NCBI RefSeq assembly: GCF_030268965.1
Contig: NZ_BSSE01000002.1
Span: 124,001 to 188,000 of the forward strand
Length of the DNA: 64,000 bases
Origin: Microtetraspora sp. NBRC 16547
GTDB taxonomy: Bacteria; Actinomycetota; Actinomycetes; Streptosporangiales; Streptosporangiaceae
Reading direction: 5' to 3'
Shown here: positions 16,268-40,031 of the stretch, one piece after another
Position numbering within the stretch: position 1 is the first letter of the stretch
How the letters are laid out: each line of letters begins with the position of its first letter
Notes under the pieces: generated by a model
What the model was told of the DNA's origin: nothing
Database searches by the model: none
The model's input: only the letters and a program-made list of their open reading frames with translations
Position numbers and translations under genes: made by a program

Positions 16268-17809
16268 GTGCTTCTCGCGATCTCTACCGTTTCCTCCGTG
16301 ACGTCCCGTCCGGCGACCGATCTCGGCTTCCTCCTGCACAAGCACCCCGAACGGGTGCAGGAGTTCGCCCAGTCGTTCGGCACGGCGCGCGTCTTCTACC
16401 CGGAGGCGACGGAGCGGCGCTGCACGGCGGCCCTGCTGCTGGACGTCGATCCGGTCCGGCTCGCGCGTTCGCGCGGCAAGACCTCGCCGGACTTCAGCCT
16501 GGGGCAGTACGTCAACGATCGACCCTACGCGGCGTCGTCGCTGCTCGCCGTGGCGCTCGCGGACGTCTTCCGGACGGCCAGGACGGGGCGCTGCGACGCC
16601 CGGCCCGAGCTGGCGGCGGGACCGATGCCCCTGGAGATCCTCCTGCCCGCGCTGCCGTGCCGCGGCGGCGCCGCGCTCGCCCACCGGCTGTTCGAGCCGC
16701 TCGGATGGGAGGTGGAGGCGACCGCCGTCCCCCTCGACGAGGGATTCCCCGAGTGGGGCGACTCCCGGTACGTACGGCTGTCGCTGCGGGGTGAGGTGCG
16801 GCTCGCCGACGCGCTCAACCAGCTGTACGTGCTGCTGCCGGTGCTGGACGACGCCAAGCACTACTGGCTGGCGGGCGACGAGGTGGACAAGCTCGTCCGC
16901 GCGGGTGAGGGCTGGCTGGCCGTGCATCCCGAGAAGGGCCTGATCACCCGGCGGTACCTCGGCCGTCGCAGGGCGCTGGAGCGGACGGCCTTCGCCCGGC
17001 TGGCCGAGCTGGGTGACGACGTCGAGGAGGCCCTGGAGCCGCCCGTGGAGGAGGAGCTCACTCCCGACCAGCCTGCCGGGTCCGGGTCCGGGTCCGGGTC
17101 CGGGTCCGGGTCTGAGCCCGCGGTCACGCCTGTGTCCGACCCCGCGACTGGGCCGGAGGGCGGTCGCGTCCCCCTCAACGTGCTGCGGAGGGACGCCGTC
17201 GTCGCCGTTCTCGAGGAACTCGGCGCGCGTACGGTGATCGACCTCGGGTGCGGGTCCGGCCAACTGCTCTCCGCGCTGCTGGTCCGGCCGTCCTTCGCCA
17301 GGATCGCGGGCACCGACGTGTCCACGCAGGCGCTCGCCATCGCCGCGCGCAAGCTCAAGCTGGACCGGATGCCGGACGCGAAACGGGCCCGCCTGGAGCT
17401 GTTCCAGGGCGCGCTGACCTACGCCGACCCACGGTTCGCGGGGTACGACGCCGCGGTTCTCATGGAGGTGATCGAGCACGTCGATCCGCCCCGGCTGCGC
17501 GCGCTGGAACGGGTCGTCTTCGGTACGGCCAAGCCCGCGCACGTCGTCGTGACCACGCCCAACTCGGAGTACAACGTGCGCTACGACTTCCTGGGCGAAG
17601 CCCATGGCAGGGGCCGGGCGATGCGCCACCCGGACCACCGGTTCGAGTGGACCCGGGCCGAGTTCGCCGCCTGGGCCTCGGCGGTGGCAGGCCGGTACGG
17701 ATATCACGTCGCGCTCAGGCCGGTGGGGGAGGACGACTCGGAGATCGGGCCGCCCACCCAGATGGCGGTGTTCAGCGTGACGGCGGAGAGGAGCGAGGGC
17801 GATGGTTGA
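16268..17809 (+). CDS. hen1: Hen1 RNA 3'-terminal ribose 2'-O-methyltransferase
   Basis: A 513-residue bacterial Hen1. The N-terminal domain (residues 1-250) is the Pnkp-partner domain that activates the ligase, and the C-terminal half is the Mn2+-dependent methyltransferase. Methyltransferase landmarks are VIDLGCGSGQLLSALL for SAM, and the metal ligands in MEVIEHVDPPRLRALE with a following MRHPDHRFEW. It marks the 3' end of the 5' RNA fragment at a break so that a repaired RNA resists re-cleavage. The two halves are joined by a Gly-Ser repeat linker. GTG start; overlaps pnkp by 8 nt. Confidence 0.96.
   Translation: MLLAISTVSSVTSRPATDLGFLLHKHPERVQEFAQSFGTARVFYPEATERRCTAALLLDVDPVRLARSRGKTSPDFSLGQYVNDRPYAASSLLAVALADVFRTARTGRCDARPELAAGPMPLEILLPALPCRGGAALAHRLFEPLGWEVEATAVPLDEGFPEWGDSRYVRLSLRGEVRLADALNQLYVLLPVLDDAKHYWLAGDEVDKLVRAGEGWLAVHPEKGLITRRYLGRRRALERTAFARLAELGDDVEEALEPPVEEELTPDQPAGSGSGSGSGSGSEPAVTPVSDPATGPEGGRVPLNVLRRDAVVAVLEELGARTVIDLGCGSGQLLSALLVRPSFARIAGTDVSTQALAIAARKLKLDRMPDAKRARLELFQGALTYADPRFAGYDAAVLMEVIEHVDPPRLRALERVVFGTAKPAHVVVTTPNSEYNVRYDFLGEAHGRGRAMRHPDHRFEWTRAEFAAWASAVAGRYGYHVALRPVGEDDSEIGPPTQMAVFSVTAERSEGDG
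17078..17113 (+). repeat. hexanucleotide repeat encoding the Hen1 Gly-Ser linker
   Basis: Six GGGTCC-type hexamers in a row (the last is GGGTCT) encode GSGSGSGSGSGS between the N- and C-terminal halves of Hen1. As an in-frame microsatellite it can change linker length by slippage without breaking the frame. Confidence 0.9.
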
Positions 17810-20357
17810 GGTCAAGGTTCCGGAGGCCGGGCTGGTGGTGCTCGTCGGCGTCTCCGGGAGCGGGAAGTCGACCTTCGCGTCCCGGCACTTCGCGCCCACG
17901 CAGGTGATCTCGTCGGACTTCTGCCGGGGCCTGGTCTCCGACGACGAGAACGACCAGTCCGCCACGCCGGACGCGTTCGACGTGCTGCACTACATCGTCG
18001 GGACCCGTCTGCGGCGCGGCCTTCTCACGGTCGTGGACGCCACCAACGTGCAGTGGGACGCCCGCAAGAAGCTGATCGAGCTGGCCAGGAGCCATGACGT
18101 GCTCGCCGACGCCATCGTGCTCGACGTCGCGGAGCGGGTGGCCGTCGAGCGCAACGCCGTACGGCCGGACCGGAACTTCGGGCCGCGCGTGATCACCCGG
18201 CAGAGCAAGGAGCTGCGCCGCTCGCTTGGCCGGATGTCCAAGGACGGCTTCCGCCGCGTCCACGTCCTGCGCGGGGACGAGATCGACGAGGCGGTGATCT
18301 CTTACGAGAAGTCGTGGACCGACAAGACGGAGCTGACCGGTCCGTTCGACATCATCGGCGACGTGCACGGATGCCGGTCGGAGCTGGAGACGCTGCTGCG
18401 CTCCCTCGGCTGGGAGGTCACCCCCGGGGGCGCGGTCCACCCCGAGGGACGTACGGCCGTGTTCGTCGGCGACCTGGTCGACCGCGGCCCCGACACCCCG
18501 GGCGTGCTGCGCCTCGTCATGGGCATGGTCGCGGCCGGGACCGCCCTCTGCGTGTCCGGGAACCACGAGCAGAAGCTCGTCCGCGCGCTCAACGGGCGCA
18601 AGGTCAGGGTCGCGCACGGCCTCAAGGAGTCCCTGGAGCAGCTCGCCGCCGAGCCGGAGGAGTTCCAGCGGGAGGCCAGGGCGTTCATGGACGGCCTCAT
18701 CAGCCACTACCGGCTCGACGGAGGACGGCTCGTCGTCGCGCACGCCGGACTCAAGGAGGCCTACCACGGGCGGGCCAGCGGCCGCGTGCGCGCGTTCGCG
18801 CTGTACGGCGACACGACGGGGGAGACCGACGAGTACGGCCTGCCCGTCCGCTACCCGTGGGCGGAGGAGTACCGGGGCCACGCGATGGTGGTCTACGGCC
18901 ACACGCCGGTCCCCAAGCCGGAGTGGATCAACAACACGATCTGCCTGGACACCGGGGTCGTCTTCGGCGGGAAGCTGACCGCCCTGCGCTACCCCGAGCG
19001 CGAGCTGGTCTCCGTGCCGGCGGAGCGGGTCTGGTACGAGTCGGTCCGGCCGCTCGGGGCGCCGGCCGGCCGTGACCCGGGCGCGCTGCGGATCGGCGAC
19101 GTCACCGGAACCCGGTACGTGGACACGCGGCTCGGTGGCCGGATCAAGGTCAGGGAGGAGAACGCCGCCGCCGCTCTGGAGATCATGAGCCGGTTCGCGG
19201 TGGACCCCCACTGGCTGGTCTACCTGCCGCCGACCATGGCGCCGCCGGAGACGTCCACACTCGACGGCTTCCTGGAGCATCCGGCGGAGGCGTTCGAGGA
19301 GTTCGCCCAGGCGGGTGTCACCCGCGTCGTGTGCGAGGAGAAGCACATGGGGTCGCGGGCGATAGCCGTACTGGCCCGGACCCCCGAGGTAGCGGCCAAG
19401 CGGTTCGGGGTCACCGACGGGAGCGCGGGCGCGGTCTACACGCGCACCGGTCGGCCGTTCTTCGGCGACGGCCGGATGGGCGAGCTGGTCGACCGGCTGC
19501 GCGAGGAGGTGCGTCCGCTCTGGGACGAGCTGGTCTCGGACTGGGTGGTGCTCGACTGCGAGCTGCTGCCCTGGTCGGCGAAGGCGGAGGAGCTGATCCG
19601 CGGCCAGTACGCCTCGGTCGGGGCGGCGGCGCGGGCCGCGCTGCCGGACGCGGTCGCGGCGCTCTCGGCGGCGGCGGGGCGCGGCCTGGACGTCGGCGAC
19701 CTGCTTGAGCGCACCCGGCGCCGCCAGGACAACGCCGCCCGCTTCCGCGACGCGTACGCGCGATACTGCTGGCCGGTGTCCGGCCTCGACGGTGTACGGC
19801 TCGCGCCGTTCCAGATCCTCGCGTGCGAGGGGCGGGCGACGGCCGTGAGCGAGCCGCACTCCTGGCATCTGGACGTGCTGTCGCGGGTGTCCTCCGAGAC
19901 CTCCGCGTCTTTGCGCGCGCCCGAGTCCGGCGCGTCTTTGCGCGTGCCTGAGTCCGGCGCGACTGGGCTGATCGCGCCGACCCGGCACGCGTTCGTGTCG
20001 CTGGACTCCGAGCAGGAGCGGGCGAACGCGATCGAGTGGTGGTCGGAGCTGACCGCCGCGGGTGGCGAGGGCATGGTGGTGAAACCGGTGGACCACACGC
20101 CCGGCCGGATCCAGCCAGGGATCAAGGTCCGCGGCCGCGAGTACCTCCGGATCATCTACGGGCCGGACTACACCGAGTCCCTGGACGTGTTGCGGCGCCG
20201 GTTCCTCGGCAGGAAGCGCTCGCTGGCGCTGCGGGAGCACGCGCTCGGACTGGAGGCGCTCACCCGTCTCGCCGAGGGCGAACCGCTGTGGCGCGTCCAC
20301 GAGCCGGTCTTCGCCGTACTGGCCCTGGAGTCCGAGCCCGTGGACCCGCGCCTGTGA
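17802..20357 (+). CDS. pnkp: polynucleotide kinase-phosphatase-ligase Pnkp
   Basis: An 851-residue, three-domain RNA end-healing and sealing enzyme. The 5'-OH kinase has P-loop GVSGSGKST (residues 16-24). The 2',3'-phosphatase is a binuclear metallophosphoesterase with GDVHG (186-190), GDLVDRG (223-229) and GNHE (253-256). The C-terminal adenylyltransferase has the likely nucleotidyl-lysine K514 in EEKHMGSRA. Bacterial Pnkp seals only when its ligase is activated by Hen1, which is encoded directly upstream with an 8-nt overlap. The GTG of the next gene overlaps its stop. A direct repeat encoding SASLR(A/V)PESGA occurs near residue 705. Confidence 0.97.
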   Translation: MVEVKVPEAGLVVLVGVSGSGKSTFASRHFAPTQVISSDFCRGLVSDDENDQSATPDAFDVLHYIVGTRLRRGLLTVVDATNVQWDARKKLIELARSHDVLADAIVLDVAERVAVERNAVRPDRNFGPRVITRQSKELRRSLGRMSKDGFRRVHVLRGDEIDEAVISYEKSWTDKTELTGPFDIIGDVHGCRSELETLLRSLGWEVTPGGAVHPEGRTAVFVGDLVDRGPDTPGVLRLVMGMVAAGTALCVSGNHEQKLVRALNGRKVRVAHGLKESLEQLAAEPEEFQREARAFMDGLISHYRLDGGRLVVAHAGLKEAYHGRASGRVRAFALYGDTTGETDEYGLPVRYPWAEEYRGHAMVVYGHTPVPKPEWINNTICLDTGVVFGGKLTALRYPERELVSVPAERVWYESVRPLGAPAGRDPGALRIGDVTGTRYVDTRLGGRIKVREENAAAALEIMSRFAVDPHWLVYLPPTMAPPETSTLDGFLEHPAEAFEEFAQAGVTRVVCEEKHMGSRAIAVLARTPEVAAKRFGVTDGSAGAVYTRTGRPFFGDGRMGELVDRLREEVRPLWDELVSDWVVLDCELLPWSAKAEELIRGQYASVGAAARAALPDAVAALSAAAGRGLDVGDLLERTRRRQDNAARFRDAYARYCWPVSGLDGVRLAPFQILACEGRATAVSEPHSWHLDVLSRVSSETSASLRAPESGASLRVPESGATGLIAPTRHAFVSLDSEQERANAIEWWSELTAAGGEGMVVKPVDHTPGRIQPGIKVRGREYLRIIYGPDYTESLDVLRRRFLGRKRSLALREHALGLEALTRLAEGEPLWRVHEPVFAVLALESEPVDPRL

Positions 20358-21064
20358 CGTCCTCGGGGGAGCGGTCGGGGCCGGGGGCAGGGGGAGCCGC
20401 GACGGGCGTCGAGGACCTGGTGCCCCGGCACATCGTCCTGTCCGTGGTCGTCGGTTCGCGCGCGTACGGCCTGGCCACCGCGGACAGCGACGTGGATCGG
20501 CGGGGCGTCTTCGTGCCGCCCACGCCCATGTTCTGGCGCCTGGACAAGCCGCCCACCCACGTGGAGGGGCCGCGCCCCGAGGAGTTCTCCTGGGAGGTCG
20601 AGCGGTTCTGCGTGCTCGCGCTCGGGGCCAATCCCACGGTCCTGGAGTGCCTCTGGTCGCCGCTCGTCGAGCACGTCACCGAAACCGGCGCGCGGCTGCG
20701 CGCGATCAGGCAGGCGTTTCTCTCGGTCCGGGCCGAGGAGACCTTCCTCCGGTACGCCGACGCCCAGTTCCGCCGGCTCAGCCCGGAACGGCCGAAATGG
20801 AAGCAGGTCATGCACATGATCAGGCTGCTGATCAGCGGCCGCCACCTGGTGCGCGCGGGCGAACCGCTGCTGGACATGTCCGAGCACCGGGACCGGCTGC
20901 TCGCCGTCCGCCGCGGCGAGGTGCCCTGGCCCGAGGTGGTGCGGTGGCGCGCCGACCTGGTCGCGGGCCTCTCCGGAGGCGGCGGCCCCGCCGCGCTGCC
21001 CGCCGAGCCGGACCGGGCCGCGGTCGAGGCGTTCCTGATCGACGTGCGGAGGAGCGCGCTGTGA
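20354..21064 (+). CDS. pol-beta-type nucleotidyltransferase (YcgL/COG3541-like), paralogue 1
   Basis: A 236-residue protein with a minimal nucleotidyltransferase core: VVGSRAYGLATADSDVDRRG, that is G34-S35 followed by the metal-binding D-x-D at 44-48. An acidic strand SWEVERF may supply the third carboxylate, and the helical part contains ALGANPTVLECLWSP. It matches the uncharacterised YcgL/COG3541 family. Its GTG start overlaps the pnkp stop by 4 nt (GTGA), so it belongs to the RNA-repair operon. Possible activities are nucleotide addition to RNA ends or nucleotidylation of a protein; neither is shown. Confidence 0.85.
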   Translation: MTSSGERSGPGAGGAATGVEDLVPRHIVLSVVVGSRAYGLATADSDVDRRGVFVPPTPMFWRLDKPPTHVEGPRPEEFSWEVERFCVLALGANPTVLECLWSPLVEHVTETGARLRAIRQAFLSVRAEETFLRYADAQFRRLSPERPKWKQVMHMIRLLISGRHLVRAGEPLLDMSEHRDRLLAVRRGEVPWPEVVRWRADLVAGLSGGGGPAALPAEPDRAAVEAFLIDVRRSAL

Positions 21065-21819
21065 CCGCCGTCCCTCCCGCCTGGCTCGCCGACGTCTGCG
21101 CCGACGAGCCCTATCCGCTGCTCTTCGCGACCGTCAGCGGCGCCCACCTGTACGGCTTCCCCTCGCGTGACTCGGACGTGGACCTGCGCGGGATGCACGC
21201 GCTCCCGGCCGAGGAGGTGGTCGGCCTGCGGACCGGCGAGGAGACGATCTCCCGGTCGTGGGAACGCGACGGCGTCGAGGTCGATCTCGTCACCCACGAC
21301 CTGCTCAAGTTCTGCCGCCTCCTGCTGACCAGGAACGGCTACGTGCTGGAGCAGCTCCTGTCGCCGCTGGTGGTGGCGTCGTCAGCCGTCCACGAGGAGC
21401 TGGTCGCGCTCGCGCCCGCCTGCCTGACCCGGCACCACGCGCACCACTACCTCGGCTTCGCCCGGACCCAGTGGCGGCTCTTCGAGCGCACCGGCGAGCT
21501 CAAACCCCTGCTCTACACCTTCCGGGTGCTGCTGACCGGTGCGCATCTCATGCGCACCGGCCGGGTCGTCGCCGATCTGACCCGCCTGCTGCCGTACGGC
21601 CCGCCGTACCTGCCGGAGCTAGTGGAGGCCAAGCGCGGGGCCGAGCACGGCGCGCTGCCCGGGGACGGCCCGGGCCGTGAGCGGCTCGCCCGGGACGTGC
21701 TCGAGCTGACGGCGGCCCTGGAGGAGGCGAGGGAGGCGTCGGCGCTGCCGGACGCCCCCACCGCGGGCGCGGCCGTACACGATCTCGTGGTCCGCGTACG
21801 GCTCGGCCGGGCGGGGTGA
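21061..21819 (+). CDS. pol-beta-type nucleotidyltransferase (YcgL/COG3541-like), paralogue 2
   Basis: A 252-residue paralogue of the gene before it: VSGAHLYGFPSRDSDVDLRG with D37-S-D39-V-D41 and a clear third acid in VEVDL (D75), then a helical region NGYVLEQLLSPLVV that parallels NPTVLECLWSPLVE in paralogue 1. The usual G-S helix cap is G-A here. Start GTG 21061 overlaps the previous stop by 4 nt. The pair may work as a heterodimer or on two substrates. It is the last gene of the hen1-pnkp operon; a secreted ParB-like gene converges on it. Confidence 0.85.
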   Translation: MTAVPPAWLADVCADEPYPLLFATVSGAHLYGFPSRDSDVDLRGMHALPAEEVVGLRTGEETISRSWERDGVEVDLVTHDLLKFCRLLLTRNGYVLEQLLSPLVVASSAVHEELVALAPACLTRHHAHHYLGFARTQWRLFERTGELKPLLYTFRVLLTGAHLMRTGRVVADLTRLLPYGPPYLPELVEAKRGAEHGALPGDGPGRERLARDVLELTAALEEAREASALPDAPTAGAAVHDLVVRVRLGRAG

Positions 21820-21883: not shown

Positions 21884-22960
21884 TCAGCGCAGGTTGTGGA
21901 CCCGCTTGTACTCCAGCGTGTAGGCCAGCTTGCCGGGCTTGGCGTCGGAGTACGGCTTGCTCAGCTTGTCGAACTCGCCCTTGTCGGCGGCCTTGCCGCC
22001 GTTCCACCGGTCCAGCGCGCCGAGCTCGGCGGCGGTGAAGCCGTTGTCGACGGTGGTGTTCTTGGGCAACGCGGTCATCGTCTCCGTCAGCGCCTTGACG
22101 GTGGCCAGGTAGCTGCCGTGGTCGTTCTGGTTCCAGTTGGCCAGGTTGATCGGCTTGGCGTCGCGGGCCCAGCTGCCCCAGTAGAACTCCTGGAACGGCA
22201 GCCCGTTCTGCGAGTAGCCGATGTCGCGGCCGAAGTAGAGCAGGCTGCGGTACTTGTCGTCGGCGAAGTTGGCCAGCCCCACGCCGGTCGGCAACTTGTT
22301 CACGGTGACCGGCTTGCCGTTGGGGTCACGCAGCCACACCCACTTGTGCGCCCGCATCTGGTTCCAGAAGTCCTGACGGGTGAGGGTGCTCAGGTTGGCC
22401 TGTACCCGCAGCCGCACGTGCAGGCCGGCACCGCCATCGGGGGTCTCGATGAAGGAGGTGAGCGTGTGGTGCCCATCGGTGAGGAACGGCTCGCCACCGG
22501 GACCGATGACGACGGTCTTCATGGCGGCGATGCTGTCCGCCGTCTCCGCGCCGACCGCGAGCTGACACGTGAACGAGGACGGGTCGTCCAGCCGCGCGCC
22601 GGGCGACACCGACGCCGCCGCTACCCGGCCATCGGCCTCGCACCAGTCGTCGAACTTCTTGTTGATCGCGTCCTTGCCGAGGGTGTAGCGGCCGAGCTTG
22701 TAGTACACCTCGTCAAAACCCAGTGACGGCTGGGTTGGGTGCACGTCACCGATGCGGACATCGAGCAGGTCACCGGGCTCAGCACACAGGTACTGCGCGA
22801 ACGGCGTGCTGCGATTGTCGTGGTGGCAGAACGACGGCCGGGTACCCGGCGCACCGGGTGCGGCGAGTGCGACCGGCGCCACGGCGGCACCGGCCCCGAC
22901 GGAGACGGCGAGGGCCGCCCCAAGCACGGAGGCTCGGCGGTACGGAGATCTGAAGCGCAT
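21884..22960 (-). CDS. secreted ParB/Srx-fold protein (ParBc_2-like)
   Basis: A 358-residue protein with a Sec signal peptide (basic start, hydrophobic core, ending PVALAAP) and a ParB/sulfiredoxin-like domain: LDVRIGDVHPTQPSLG, then FLTDGHHTLTSF, equivalent to the DGHHR nuclease/ATPase loop of ParB. This corresponds to the putative ParB-like nuclease family PF08857, whose members are often exported; its biochemical role is not settled. Start 22960 has GAGGAG eight bases upstream; the longer frame to 23023 lacks one. An extracellular nucleotide- or DNA-directed activity is a guess. Confidence 0.8.
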   Translation of the reverse strand: MRFRSPYRRASVLGAALAVSVGAGAAVAPVALAAPGAPGTRPSFCHHDNRSTPFAQYLCAEPGDLLDVRIGDVHPTQPSLGFDEVYYKLGRYTLGKDAINKKFDDWCEADGRVAAASVSPGARLDDPSSFTCQLAVGAETADSIAAMKTVVIGPGGEPFLTDGHHTLTSFIETPDGGAGLHVRLRVQANLSTLTRQDFWNQMRAHKWVWLRDPNGKPVTVNKLPTGVGLANFADDKYRSLLYFGRDIGYSQNGLPFQEFYWGSWARDAKPINLANWNQNDHGSYLATVKALTETMTALPKNTTVDNGFTAAELGALDRWNGGKAADKGEFDKLSKPYSDAKPGKLAYTLEYKRVHNLR

Positions 22961-39337: not shown

Positions 39338-39394
39338 ACACCGGAGCCGTCCGGGCAGGGACAACCTCCCTCCCCGGACGGCTCCGGTGTTTTC
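39338..39394. terminator. acnA/mazF bidirectional terminator, second hairpin
   Basis: An 18-bp perfect stem, ACACCGGAGCCGTCCGGG (39338-39355) and CCCGGACGGCTCCGGTGT (39373-39390), then TTTT. It touches the stop codon of the convergent mazF-like gene at 39394 and can end both transcripts. Confidence 0.92.
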
Positions 39395-39729
39395 TAGACC
39401 ATCCGCCCCAGTACGCCGAGGACCTCTTCGACCTTCTCAGGGGGCACCTCGCCGAGCCTCGTCGACAAACGCAGGGGAGAGAGCGACCTGACCTGCTGGA
39501 CCATCGCCCAGCTCGTCTTGCGCAGGCCGGAATCACCTGGGGGGATCTCCACATGGTGGTTCCATCCGCGCTCCCTGGTCGTGAGGGGAACAACGATGAC
39601 GAGTTCGAAGCCCGCCGTGTTGTAATCGTCGTTGCTGATCACGAGAGCGGGACGCGGGTACGCCTGCTCCCGTCCGACCGGCGAGCCGAAGTCGGCGAAC
39701 CAGATCTCGCCCTGGGAAATCTTCTTCAC
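39394..39729 (-). CDS. MazF/PemK-family endoribonuclease toxin
   Basis: A 111-residue type II toxin. GEIWFADFGSPVGREQAYPRPALVISND is the MazF core with its catalytic Arg; PLTTRERGWNHHVEI and SWAMVQQVRSLSPLRL are the following conserved strands with the catalytic Ser/Thr region. MazF enzymes cut mRNA or tRNA at short motifs. GTG 39729 overlaps the antitoxin stop as GTGA. A longer frame starts at 39837 inside the antitoxin and is not credible. Its cleavage products have 5'-OH and 2',3'-cyclic phosphate ends, the substrates of Pnkp encoded 18 kb away. Confidence 0.92.
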   Translation of the reverse strand: MKKISQGEIWFADFGSPVGREQAYPRPALVISNDDYNTAGFELVIVVPLTTRERGWNHHVEIPPGDSGLRKTSWAMVQQVRSLSPLRLSTRLGEVPPEKVEEVLGVLGRMV

Positions 39730-40031
39730 CGGTCTCCTTCGGGCAGCTCGACGAGCCCTTCCCACTCGGGGGCGATCTTCACGGAAGTGGATCGCGCACC
39801 ATCGATCTGCTGAACCTCCGTCAGGTAGTCCTCCCATGCCTCCGGGTCCTCTTGCTTGGTCTGCTCGATCTGCGCCCGCACCTTCGTCCAGAACTGCTTC
39901 CTCTCGTACTGCCGGATGGCCTGTTCCACCACTGCCGTCATGGACTTTCCTTCCTGTTCGGCGAGTTTCGCGATCTCGTCGCGTGTGACGAAGCTGACCC
40001 GGATCGTCGTCGTCTTGGGTTCGGTGCTCAT
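39726..40031 (-). CDS. ribbon-helix-helix antitoxin (MazE-like)
   Basis: A 101-residue antitoxin. The N-terminal half TTTIRVSFVTRDEIAKLAEQEGKSMTAVVEQAIRQYERKQFW is a ribbon-helix-helix DNA-binding domain, and the acidic C-terminus (EDPEAWEDYLTEVQQ...) is expected to wrap the toxin. It precedes mazF on the same strand with 4-nt overlap. It should repress its own promoter upstream of 40031; no palindrome is obvious there. Confidence 0.9.
   Translation of the reverse strand: MSTEPKTTTIRVSFVTRDEIAKLAEQEGKSMTAVVEQAIRQYERKQFWTKVRAQIEQTKQEDPEAWEDYLTEVQQIDGARSTSVKIAPEWEGLVELPEGDR

What the first reader, a model, noticed from the sequence alone, without database searches (positions are those of the whole stretch)
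16268..21819. Four-gene RNA-repair operon: Hen1, Pnkp and two nucleotidyltransferases
Seen: hen1, pnkp and two genes with GS/GA...DxD nucleotidyltransferase cores follow each other with 8-, 4- and 4-nt overlaps, so they are translationally coupled. Known: bacterial Pnkp/Hen1 heals, methylates and seals RNAs cut by ribotoxins. Inference: the added transferases extend the pathway, for example by restoring 3'-terminal nucleotides of trimmed tRNA before sealing, or by switching repair on or off through nucleotidylation. A system that heals, rebuilds, marks and seals RNA from one transcript would be new in detail.
Basis: partly seen in the sequence, partly recalled or inferred. Interest (0 to 1): 0.85.

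Follow-up and report, generated by a model that had tools for sequence, protein, structure and literature searches.

The report
RNA-repair operon with paired RNA nucleotidyltransferases
A soil bacterium carries one operon for mending broken RNA in which a known repair-and-seal enzyme pair is followed by two different enzymes of a family already predicted to put lost letters back on RNA ends; the operon is local to one genus, but the two added enzymes travel as a pair in several actinobacterial families.

Summary
The operon belongs to Microtetraspora: hen1-pnkp-RlaP1 in 5 of 5 genomes seen, RlaP2 next in 3 of 5. Elsewhere in the order RlaP rarely adjoins pnkp (2 of 104 RlaP genomes), yet the families co-occur (class: Pnkp in 42 of 49 genomes with RlaP, 15 of 148 without; Ku control much weaker). 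New here: RlaP1 and RlaP2 are two separate, strictly conserved subfamilies that stay neighbours in three gene arrangements and several families. Best reading: two RNA 3'-end nucleotidyltransferases added to Pnkp/Hen1. Activity is untested. New variant of a known kind.

The parts
16268..17809 (+). hen1: 3'-terminal RNA ribose 2'-O-methyltransferase with N-terminal Hen1_L region (513 aa)
   Evidence: TIGR04074 669 bits, PF12623 Hen1_L 5.6e-116
17802..20357 (+). pnkp: polynucleotide kinase-phosphatase-ligase (851 aa)
   Evidence: TIGR04075 1320 bits; PF16542, PF13671, PF00149
20354..21064 (+). rlaP1: RlaP nucleotidyltransferase, subfamily with GSRAYGL...SDxDRRG and E76 in the third-acid column (236 aa)
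   Evidence: PF10127 115.5 bits; invariant residues; model pLDDT 83
21061..21819 (+). rlaP2: RlaP nucleotidyltransferase, subfamily with GAHLYGF...SDxDLRG and D75 in the third-acid column (252 aa)
   Evidence: PF10127 155.6 bits; invariant residues; model pLDDT 91
17802..17809 (+). 8-nt overlap hen1/pnkp, same in the 4 other Microtetraspora genomes
20354..20357 (+). 4-nt GTGA overlap pnkp/rlaP1, same in the 4 other Microtetraspora genomes (start codon in M. glauca is a choice)
21061..21064 (+). 4-nt GTGA overlap rlaP1/rlaP2, same in the 2 other Microtetraspora genomes that have rlaP2 here

Best explanation
An RNA-repair operon of the Pnkp/Hen1 kind to which two RlaP nucleotidyltransferases have been joined. 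A ribotoxin cuts an RNA, probably a tRNA. Pnkp heals the ends, Hen1 methylates the new 3' end's 2'-OH and activates the ligase, and Pnkp seals (shown elsewhere for Pnkp/Hen1, not here). Between healing and methylation, RlaP1 and RlaP2 add back nucleotides lost from the 3' end (inferred; published prediction for RlaP in general). My addition: the two RlaPs belong to different subfamilies kept together, so they probably split the work, either by nucleotide or end specificity or as a heteromer. Outside Microtetraspora the same pair is made from its own locus and probably serves Pnkp/Hen1 in trans.
For: Family identity of all four. Conserved order and overlaps in Microtetraspora. Co-occurrence of RlaP with Pnkp: class level 42 both / 7 RlaP only / 15 Pnkp only / 133 neither of 197, odds ratio 53; outside the order 27/6/15/129; among 76 genomes with listed size of 5 Mb or more 38/5/9/24, odds ratio 20, while the Ku control gives 2.7 over all 197 and 0.3 at 5 Mb; Hen1_L gives 40/9/12/136. 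RlaP lies within 100 kb of pnkp in 14 of 104 RlaP-bearing order genomes (30 of the 104 have both on one contig), and in 5 of the 11 single-contig genomes with RlaP and a Pnkp over the cut-off. Phage RlaPs: 8 of 10 records opened, of 33 hit, have an annotated polynucleotide kinase, RNA ligase or tRNA nucleotidyltransferase gene within about 3 kb. In G079 RlaP lies 1.8 kb before RtcB. Acid triad columns invariant in 33 of 33 RlaP1 and 32 of 32 RlaP2 proteins. Both models resemble Pol-beta transferases, HalB among the nearest solved structures.
Against: The pair is usually not linked to pnkp, and the nearby positions may all derive from one ancestral linkage. RlaP without Pnkp exists (order: G016, G078, G079, G094; class outside the order: G140, G207, G236, G274, G281, G285) and Pnkp without RlaP exists (15 class genomes, 8 order genomes), so neither needs the other. 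At 7 Mb or more the association is no longer significant (28/1/6/2, p 0.11). RlaP2 is not seen next to RlaP1 in 2 of 5 Microtetraspora genomes. Protein-AMPylating enzymes score almost as high as HalB for the RlaP2 fold. No activity of any RlaP is shown here, and I saw none in the papers that I could search.
Confidence: 0.55

Rival explanations
1. The RlaP pair repairs RNA 3' ends (for example tRNA acceptor ends) as a free-standing system that does not depend on Pnkp/Hen1; joining their operon in Microtetraspora is convenience.
For: Pair mostly encoded away from pnkp with no neighbour family common to most of 20 stretches; two RlaPs present without a Pnkp match (or with a weak one only) in G078 and G016; viral locus L110 and an Alishewanella phage place RlaP beside a CCA-type enzyme.
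Against: Strong genome-level co-occurrence with Pnkp and Hen1 that the Ku control lacks.
Confidence: 0.2
2. The RlaPs nucleotidylate a protein (Pnkp, Hen1 or a toxin) and so switch repair on or off, as MNT antitoxins or GlnE do.
Against: No HEPN or other toxin gene directly beside the operon; Pfam finds only PF10127 in both; of 10 phage records opened, 8 show repair genes near RlaP and none an annotated toxin, though many neighbours are hypothetical.
Confidence: 0.08
3. One or both RlaPs make an oligonucleotide signal, as HalB of Hailong makes oligodeoxyadenylate, that reports RNA damage.
Against: No effector candidate seen beside the pair; shared fold shows no function; 11-14% identity; Foldseek ranks an aminoglycoside transferase first for RlaP2.
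Confidence: 0.07
4. Fortuitous neighbourhood: the RlaPs modify a small molecule and have nothing to do with RNA repair.
For: Aminoglycoside nucleotidyltransferases are among the best fold matches; direct operon linkage seen in one genus only.
Against: Independent links with RNA-repair genes in phages and co-occurrence with Pnkp/Hen1.
Confidence: 0.1

Closest known systems
[quoted passage not shown]
   Same: Hen1 and Pnkp equivalog matches, in one operon as PMC4411300 says they always are (abstract and passages)
   Different: Two RlaP genes overlap downstream; the passages that I saw of that paper do not mention them
[quoted passage not shown] Burroughs and Aravind 2016, not held; described in PMC7824862 section 3.4.9 and PMC6514570 passages)
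   Same: Profile match, acid triad, association with RNA repair genes, predicted restoration of lost nucleotides
   Different: Here two subfamilies are used together as a conserved neighbour pair; I saw no statement of this in the sections, passages and listings that I read
HalB of the Hailong anti-phage system
   Same: Among the nearest solved folds for both RlaPs
   Different: 11-14% identity; not found by profile search of PDB sequences with the RlaP alignment; no effector candidate seen beside the pair
CCA-adding enzymes, including split CC- and A-adding pairs (recalled)
   Same: Pol-beta transferases acting on RNA 3' ends; a two-enzyme division of labour exists there
   Different: No PolyA_pol, HD or tRNA_NucTran domain match in RlaP1 or RlaP2

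Membership tests
RlaP (PF10127) | Profile match over the gathering score | tested here: met
   115.5 and 155.6 bits against 23
RlaP (PF10127) | Pol-beta G[SA] motif, DxD and third acid | tested here: met
   In 33 RlaP1 and 32 RlaP2 proteins picked by BLAST best hit, with no motif required: G, DxD and the third-acid column (E76 in RlaP1, D75 in RlaP2) all invariant. In the larger sets of 64 and 48 rows the third acid is again invariant; those rows were picked by a pattern that includes DxD, so their DxD count is no test. That E76 is the third acid rests on alignment, not on checked geometry
RlaP (PF10127) | Association with RNA repair genes | tested here: met
   Operon with hen1-pnkp in Microtetraspora; phage neighbours; co-occurrence
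RlaP (PF10127) | Nucleotide transfer to RNA 3' ends | not testable with these tools
   Prediction only in the papers read
Pnkp-Hen1 system | Equivalog Pnkp with kinase, phosphatase and ligase domains | tested here: met
   TIGR04075 1320 bits over residues 3-851; PF13671, PF00149, PF16542
Pnkp-Hen1 system | Equivalog Hen1 with Hen1_L region, in one operon with pnkp | tested here: met
   TIGR04074 669 bits; 8-nt overlap
Pnkp-Hen1 system | Heal-methylate-seal activity | not testable with these tools
   Shown for other members (PMC4411300 passages)
CCA-adding enzyme | PolyA_pol head and tRNA nucleotidyltransferase domains | tested here: not met
   Only PF10127 matched at E 0.001
MNT-HEPN toxin-antitoxin | HEPN partner gene next to the transferase | tested here: not met
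   Neighbours are pnkp, and a ParBc_2 gene on the other strand
Hailong | HalB fold | tested here: inconclusive
Hailong | HalA effector neighbour | tested here: inconclusive
   No candidate seen in the neighbourhoods called, but no HalA profile was run; the PADLOC library is of 2023, the HalB structures of 2025

The most novel reading that the evidence does not exclude
RlaP1 and RlaP2 are a two-part repair polymerase, for example each adding different nucleotides in turn as split CC- and A-adding enzymes do, or a heteromer with two active sites, that docks on Pnkp/Hen1 so that one complex heals, rebuilds, methylates and seals broken RNA.
Probability: 0.17. Interest if true: 0.75.

Novelty: new variant of a known kind. 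Interest (0 to 1): 0.45.

Why it matters
In the papers that I could read, RlaP's role is a prediction from gene context. An operon that couples two RlaPs to the well-studied bacterial repair-and-seal pair gives one expression construct in which that prediction can be tested, and the paired, separately conserved active sites say that a test with a single RlaP could miss the activity. If the pair rebuilds trimmed ends, it explains how cells can repair RNA after nucleases that both cut and remove a nucleotide.

Tried and rejected
Non-sister origin of RlaP1 and RlaP2: the first tree (84 rows) put RlaP2 with a phage group (SH-aLRT 96), but after seven long-branched or short rows were taken out (77 rows) holding RlaP1 and RlaP2 together is not rejected (p-AU 0.58), so an old duplication remains possible. 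I make no claim of separate origins; each is one side of a branch (SH-aLRT 98 and 98).

Rows dropped before counts: 158 RlaP rows were found; 12 had no match to my motif pattern and were left out, at least two of them pieces of these subfamilies (L142, RlaP1-like; L145, RlaP2-like); 146 were thinned at 82% identity to 84 for the tree.

Common neighbours of the pair outside Microtetraspora: gene calls in 20 stretches of 16-19.5 kb show no family common to most of them; a few recur in three or four stretches, and in one stretch (L040) no RlaP was called.

RtcB or RNA_ligase as the partner in Pnkp-less genomes: RtcB is present in 8 of 10 RlaP-positive Pnkp-negative genomes but also in 4 of 4 Pnkp-positive ones, so it does not discriminate. 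RNA_ligase matches over the cut-off occur in 1 of those 10 and 3 of those 4.

Promoter and terminator scan: 0 promoter-like and 1 terminator-like site (1.2 expected), uninformative at this G+C.

Search of PDB sequences with the alignment headed by RlaP2 gave one chance-level hit (E 0.11). PADLOC gave no hit for the RlaPs; Hen1 and Pnkp hit mads_2 (1.1e-10) and mads_3 (0.0011) over part of their length, which I take for shared domains.

Full report
WHAT IS THERE. Four genes on the + strand overlap by 8, 4 and 4 nt: hen1, pnkp and two RlaP genes. Upstream, 127 bp away, is a luciferase-like monooxygenase gene on the same strand; downstream a ParBc_2 gene on the other strand closes the unit. The own genome has these two PF10127 matches and no other at E 0.001.

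IS THE OPERON CONSERVED. All five have hen1-pnkp-RlaP1 with the 8- and 4-nt overlaps (in M. glauca the RlaP1 start is a choice between two codons); RlaP2 follows directly in three (window, G121, G122) and is not seen within the stretch held for the other two. Outside the genus: of 38 close RlaP1 loci in genome contigs, 3 have hen1-pnkp beside RlaP1, all Microtetraspora. Of 121 genomes of the order, 104 have PF10127; Pnkp is directly adjacent in 2 (G000, G082), within 6 kb in 3 more (G025, G039, G055), and within 100 kb in 14 altogether; 30 of the 104 have RlaP and an over-cut-off Pnkp on one contig, so the distance is unknown for the rest (using the 102 Pnkp genomes over the cut-off). Of the 11 single-contig genomes with both, 5 are within 100 kb; these five come from two genera (g12, g19), so one ancestral linkage would explain them.

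DO THEY GO TOGETHER. Class level, 197 genomes: both 42, RlaP only 7, Pnkp (E 1e-60 or better, partial ones included) only 15, neither 133. Outside the order: 27, 6, 15, 129. Hen1_L: 40, 9, 12, 136. Genome size could cause this, so I used Ku as a control: 43/6/108/40, odds ratio 2.7, p 0.03 over all 197. Sizes were listed for 171 of the 197. Among the 76 of these of 5 Mb or more RlaP x Pnkp is 38/5/9/24 (odds ratio 20, p 5e-8) and RlaP x Ku 39/4/32/1 (odds ratio 0.3, p 0.38); at 6 Mb or more (53) RlaP x Pnkp is 33/2/8/10 (p 1e-4); at 7 Mb or more (37) 28/1/6/2 (p 0.11). Order level: 100, 4, 8, 9 (G001, with only the kinase part, counted as lacking Pnkp, other partial Pnkps as having it). Within genera the pattern is mixed: G037 (g3) and G111 (g7) lack RlaP and a convincing Pnkp, but G016 and G078 (g2) and G079 (g17) keep RlaP without Pnkp, and G054 and G075 (g13) the reverse. 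The p-values ignore kinship.

TWO RlaPs, NOT ONE TWICE. RlaP1 and RlaP2 are 29% identical. RlaP1 proteins carry GSRAYGL (GSRAFGL in family f20), SDxDxRG and an invariant Glu in the third-acid column; RlaP2 proteins carry GAHLYGF, SDxDxRG and an invariant Asp there (33 and 32 proteins picked without a motif; third acid again invariant in 64 and 48 rows picked by motif). A Glu in that place fits the [D/E]h[D/E]..h[D/E]h motif quoted for related enzymes (PMC12265719 passage). Each set is one side of a branch with SH-aLRT 98 and holds members from Streptosporangiaceae, Micromonosporaceae and the unnamed family f20, which I guess to be Streptomycetaceae. Whether they arose from one old duplication is open (p-AU 0.58).

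THE PAIR IS KEPT. Of 38 RlaP1 loci, 28 have RlaP2 within about 1 kb, one of them (L060) only as a fragment. The arrangement varies: same strand with RlaP1 first (27 of the 28), same strand with RlaP2 first (L066, Thermoactinospora), and tail to tail in five f20 genomes (G159, G176, G217, G246, G273; all but G246 confirmed by tblastn; RlaP2 is matched in two pieces in G217 and over a short stretch only in G246, so it may be broken there). One or two called genes separate them in G025, G033 and G041; they lie on different contigs in G060 and G091. RlaP1 without a second RlaP occurs (G007, G055, G082). Staying close through such reshuffling suggests that the two act together.

INDEPENDENT LINKS OF RlaP TO RNA REPAIR. 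tblastn of RlaP2 finds 33 phage records; I opened 10, chosen by me. Eight have an annotated repair gene within about 3 kb: polynucleotide kinase in Streptomyces phages BRock, pSt2308 and GiJojo; RNA ligase in Gordonia phages Daredevil and Bantam, CcrColossus and BcepSaruman; tRNA nucleotidyltransferase in Alishewanella phage Slickus01. JustBecause and Papperlapapp show none annotated. Several are close kin, so perhaps five independent cases. Of ten IMG/VR loci I scanned ten neighbouring proteins from six: a ligase in L115 and a CCA-type enzyme in L110; the other eight gave no such match. In a G079 stretch that looks prophage-like to me (not tested), RlaP, one called gene, then RtcB.

HOW IT PROBABLY WORKS. 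Shown elsewhere (PMC4411300 abstract and passages): Pnkp heals and seals, Hen1 methylates the 2'-OH during repair and its N-terminal part activates the ligase, and the repaired RNA resists the same toxin. Published prediction (PMC7824862 section 3.4.9, that section read whole; PMC6514570 passages): RlaP restores nucleotides lost by trimming, for example after RloC, before ligation. Shown here: RlaP1 and RlaP2 are co-encoded with Pnkp/Hen1 in one genus, RlaP co-occurs with them in the class, and the two form a conserved pair with two distinct conserved active sites. Inferred: both act on the 3' end before methylation, and they divide the work.

NOVELTY. I did not see the operon with two RlaPs, or the two-subfamily pair, described in the listings of seven library searches; these list at most 30 papers each (one search showed 20 of 102 papers that hold the word RlaP, one search showed 30 of 96), and the founding paper (Burroughs and Aravind 2016) is not held, so priority is uncertain.

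Noticed in passing
window 39394-40031, - strand: A PemK/MazF-like toxin gene with a ribbon-helix-helix antitoxin gene: an RNA-cutting toxin type in the same window as the RNA repair operon, about 18 kb away.
   Followed up: no
window 17078-17113: hen1 holds a run of GGGTCC hexamers coding (GS)n, apparently a linker between the Hen1_L and methyltransferase regions.
   Followed up: no
G011, G017, G073 (genus g5), G056, G068: Pnkp matches that cover only the kinase-phosphatase half (about residues 3-430); G011 and G017 also have no Hen1_L match (the other three not tested): possible healing-only forms.
   Followed up: partly
L099, L100, L101, L106, L107 (same family; genomes G019, G008, G012, G017, G018): A third RlaP type with GS[GR]VHG instead of GSRAYG, the only RlaP in these five genomes, and not on the contig of an over-cut-off Pnkp.
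   Followed up: partly
G247, G265, G283 (family f21, genus g69): A weak RlaP match (28-32 bits) lies 22-26 kb from pnkp in all three.
   Followed up: no
L109 5151-5990: In a viral contig the gene just before RlaP matches anti-Pycsar Apyc1.
   Followed up: no
window 21884-22927, - strand: A ParBc_2 (putative ParB-like nuclease) gene lies directly downstream, on the other strand.
   Followed up: no
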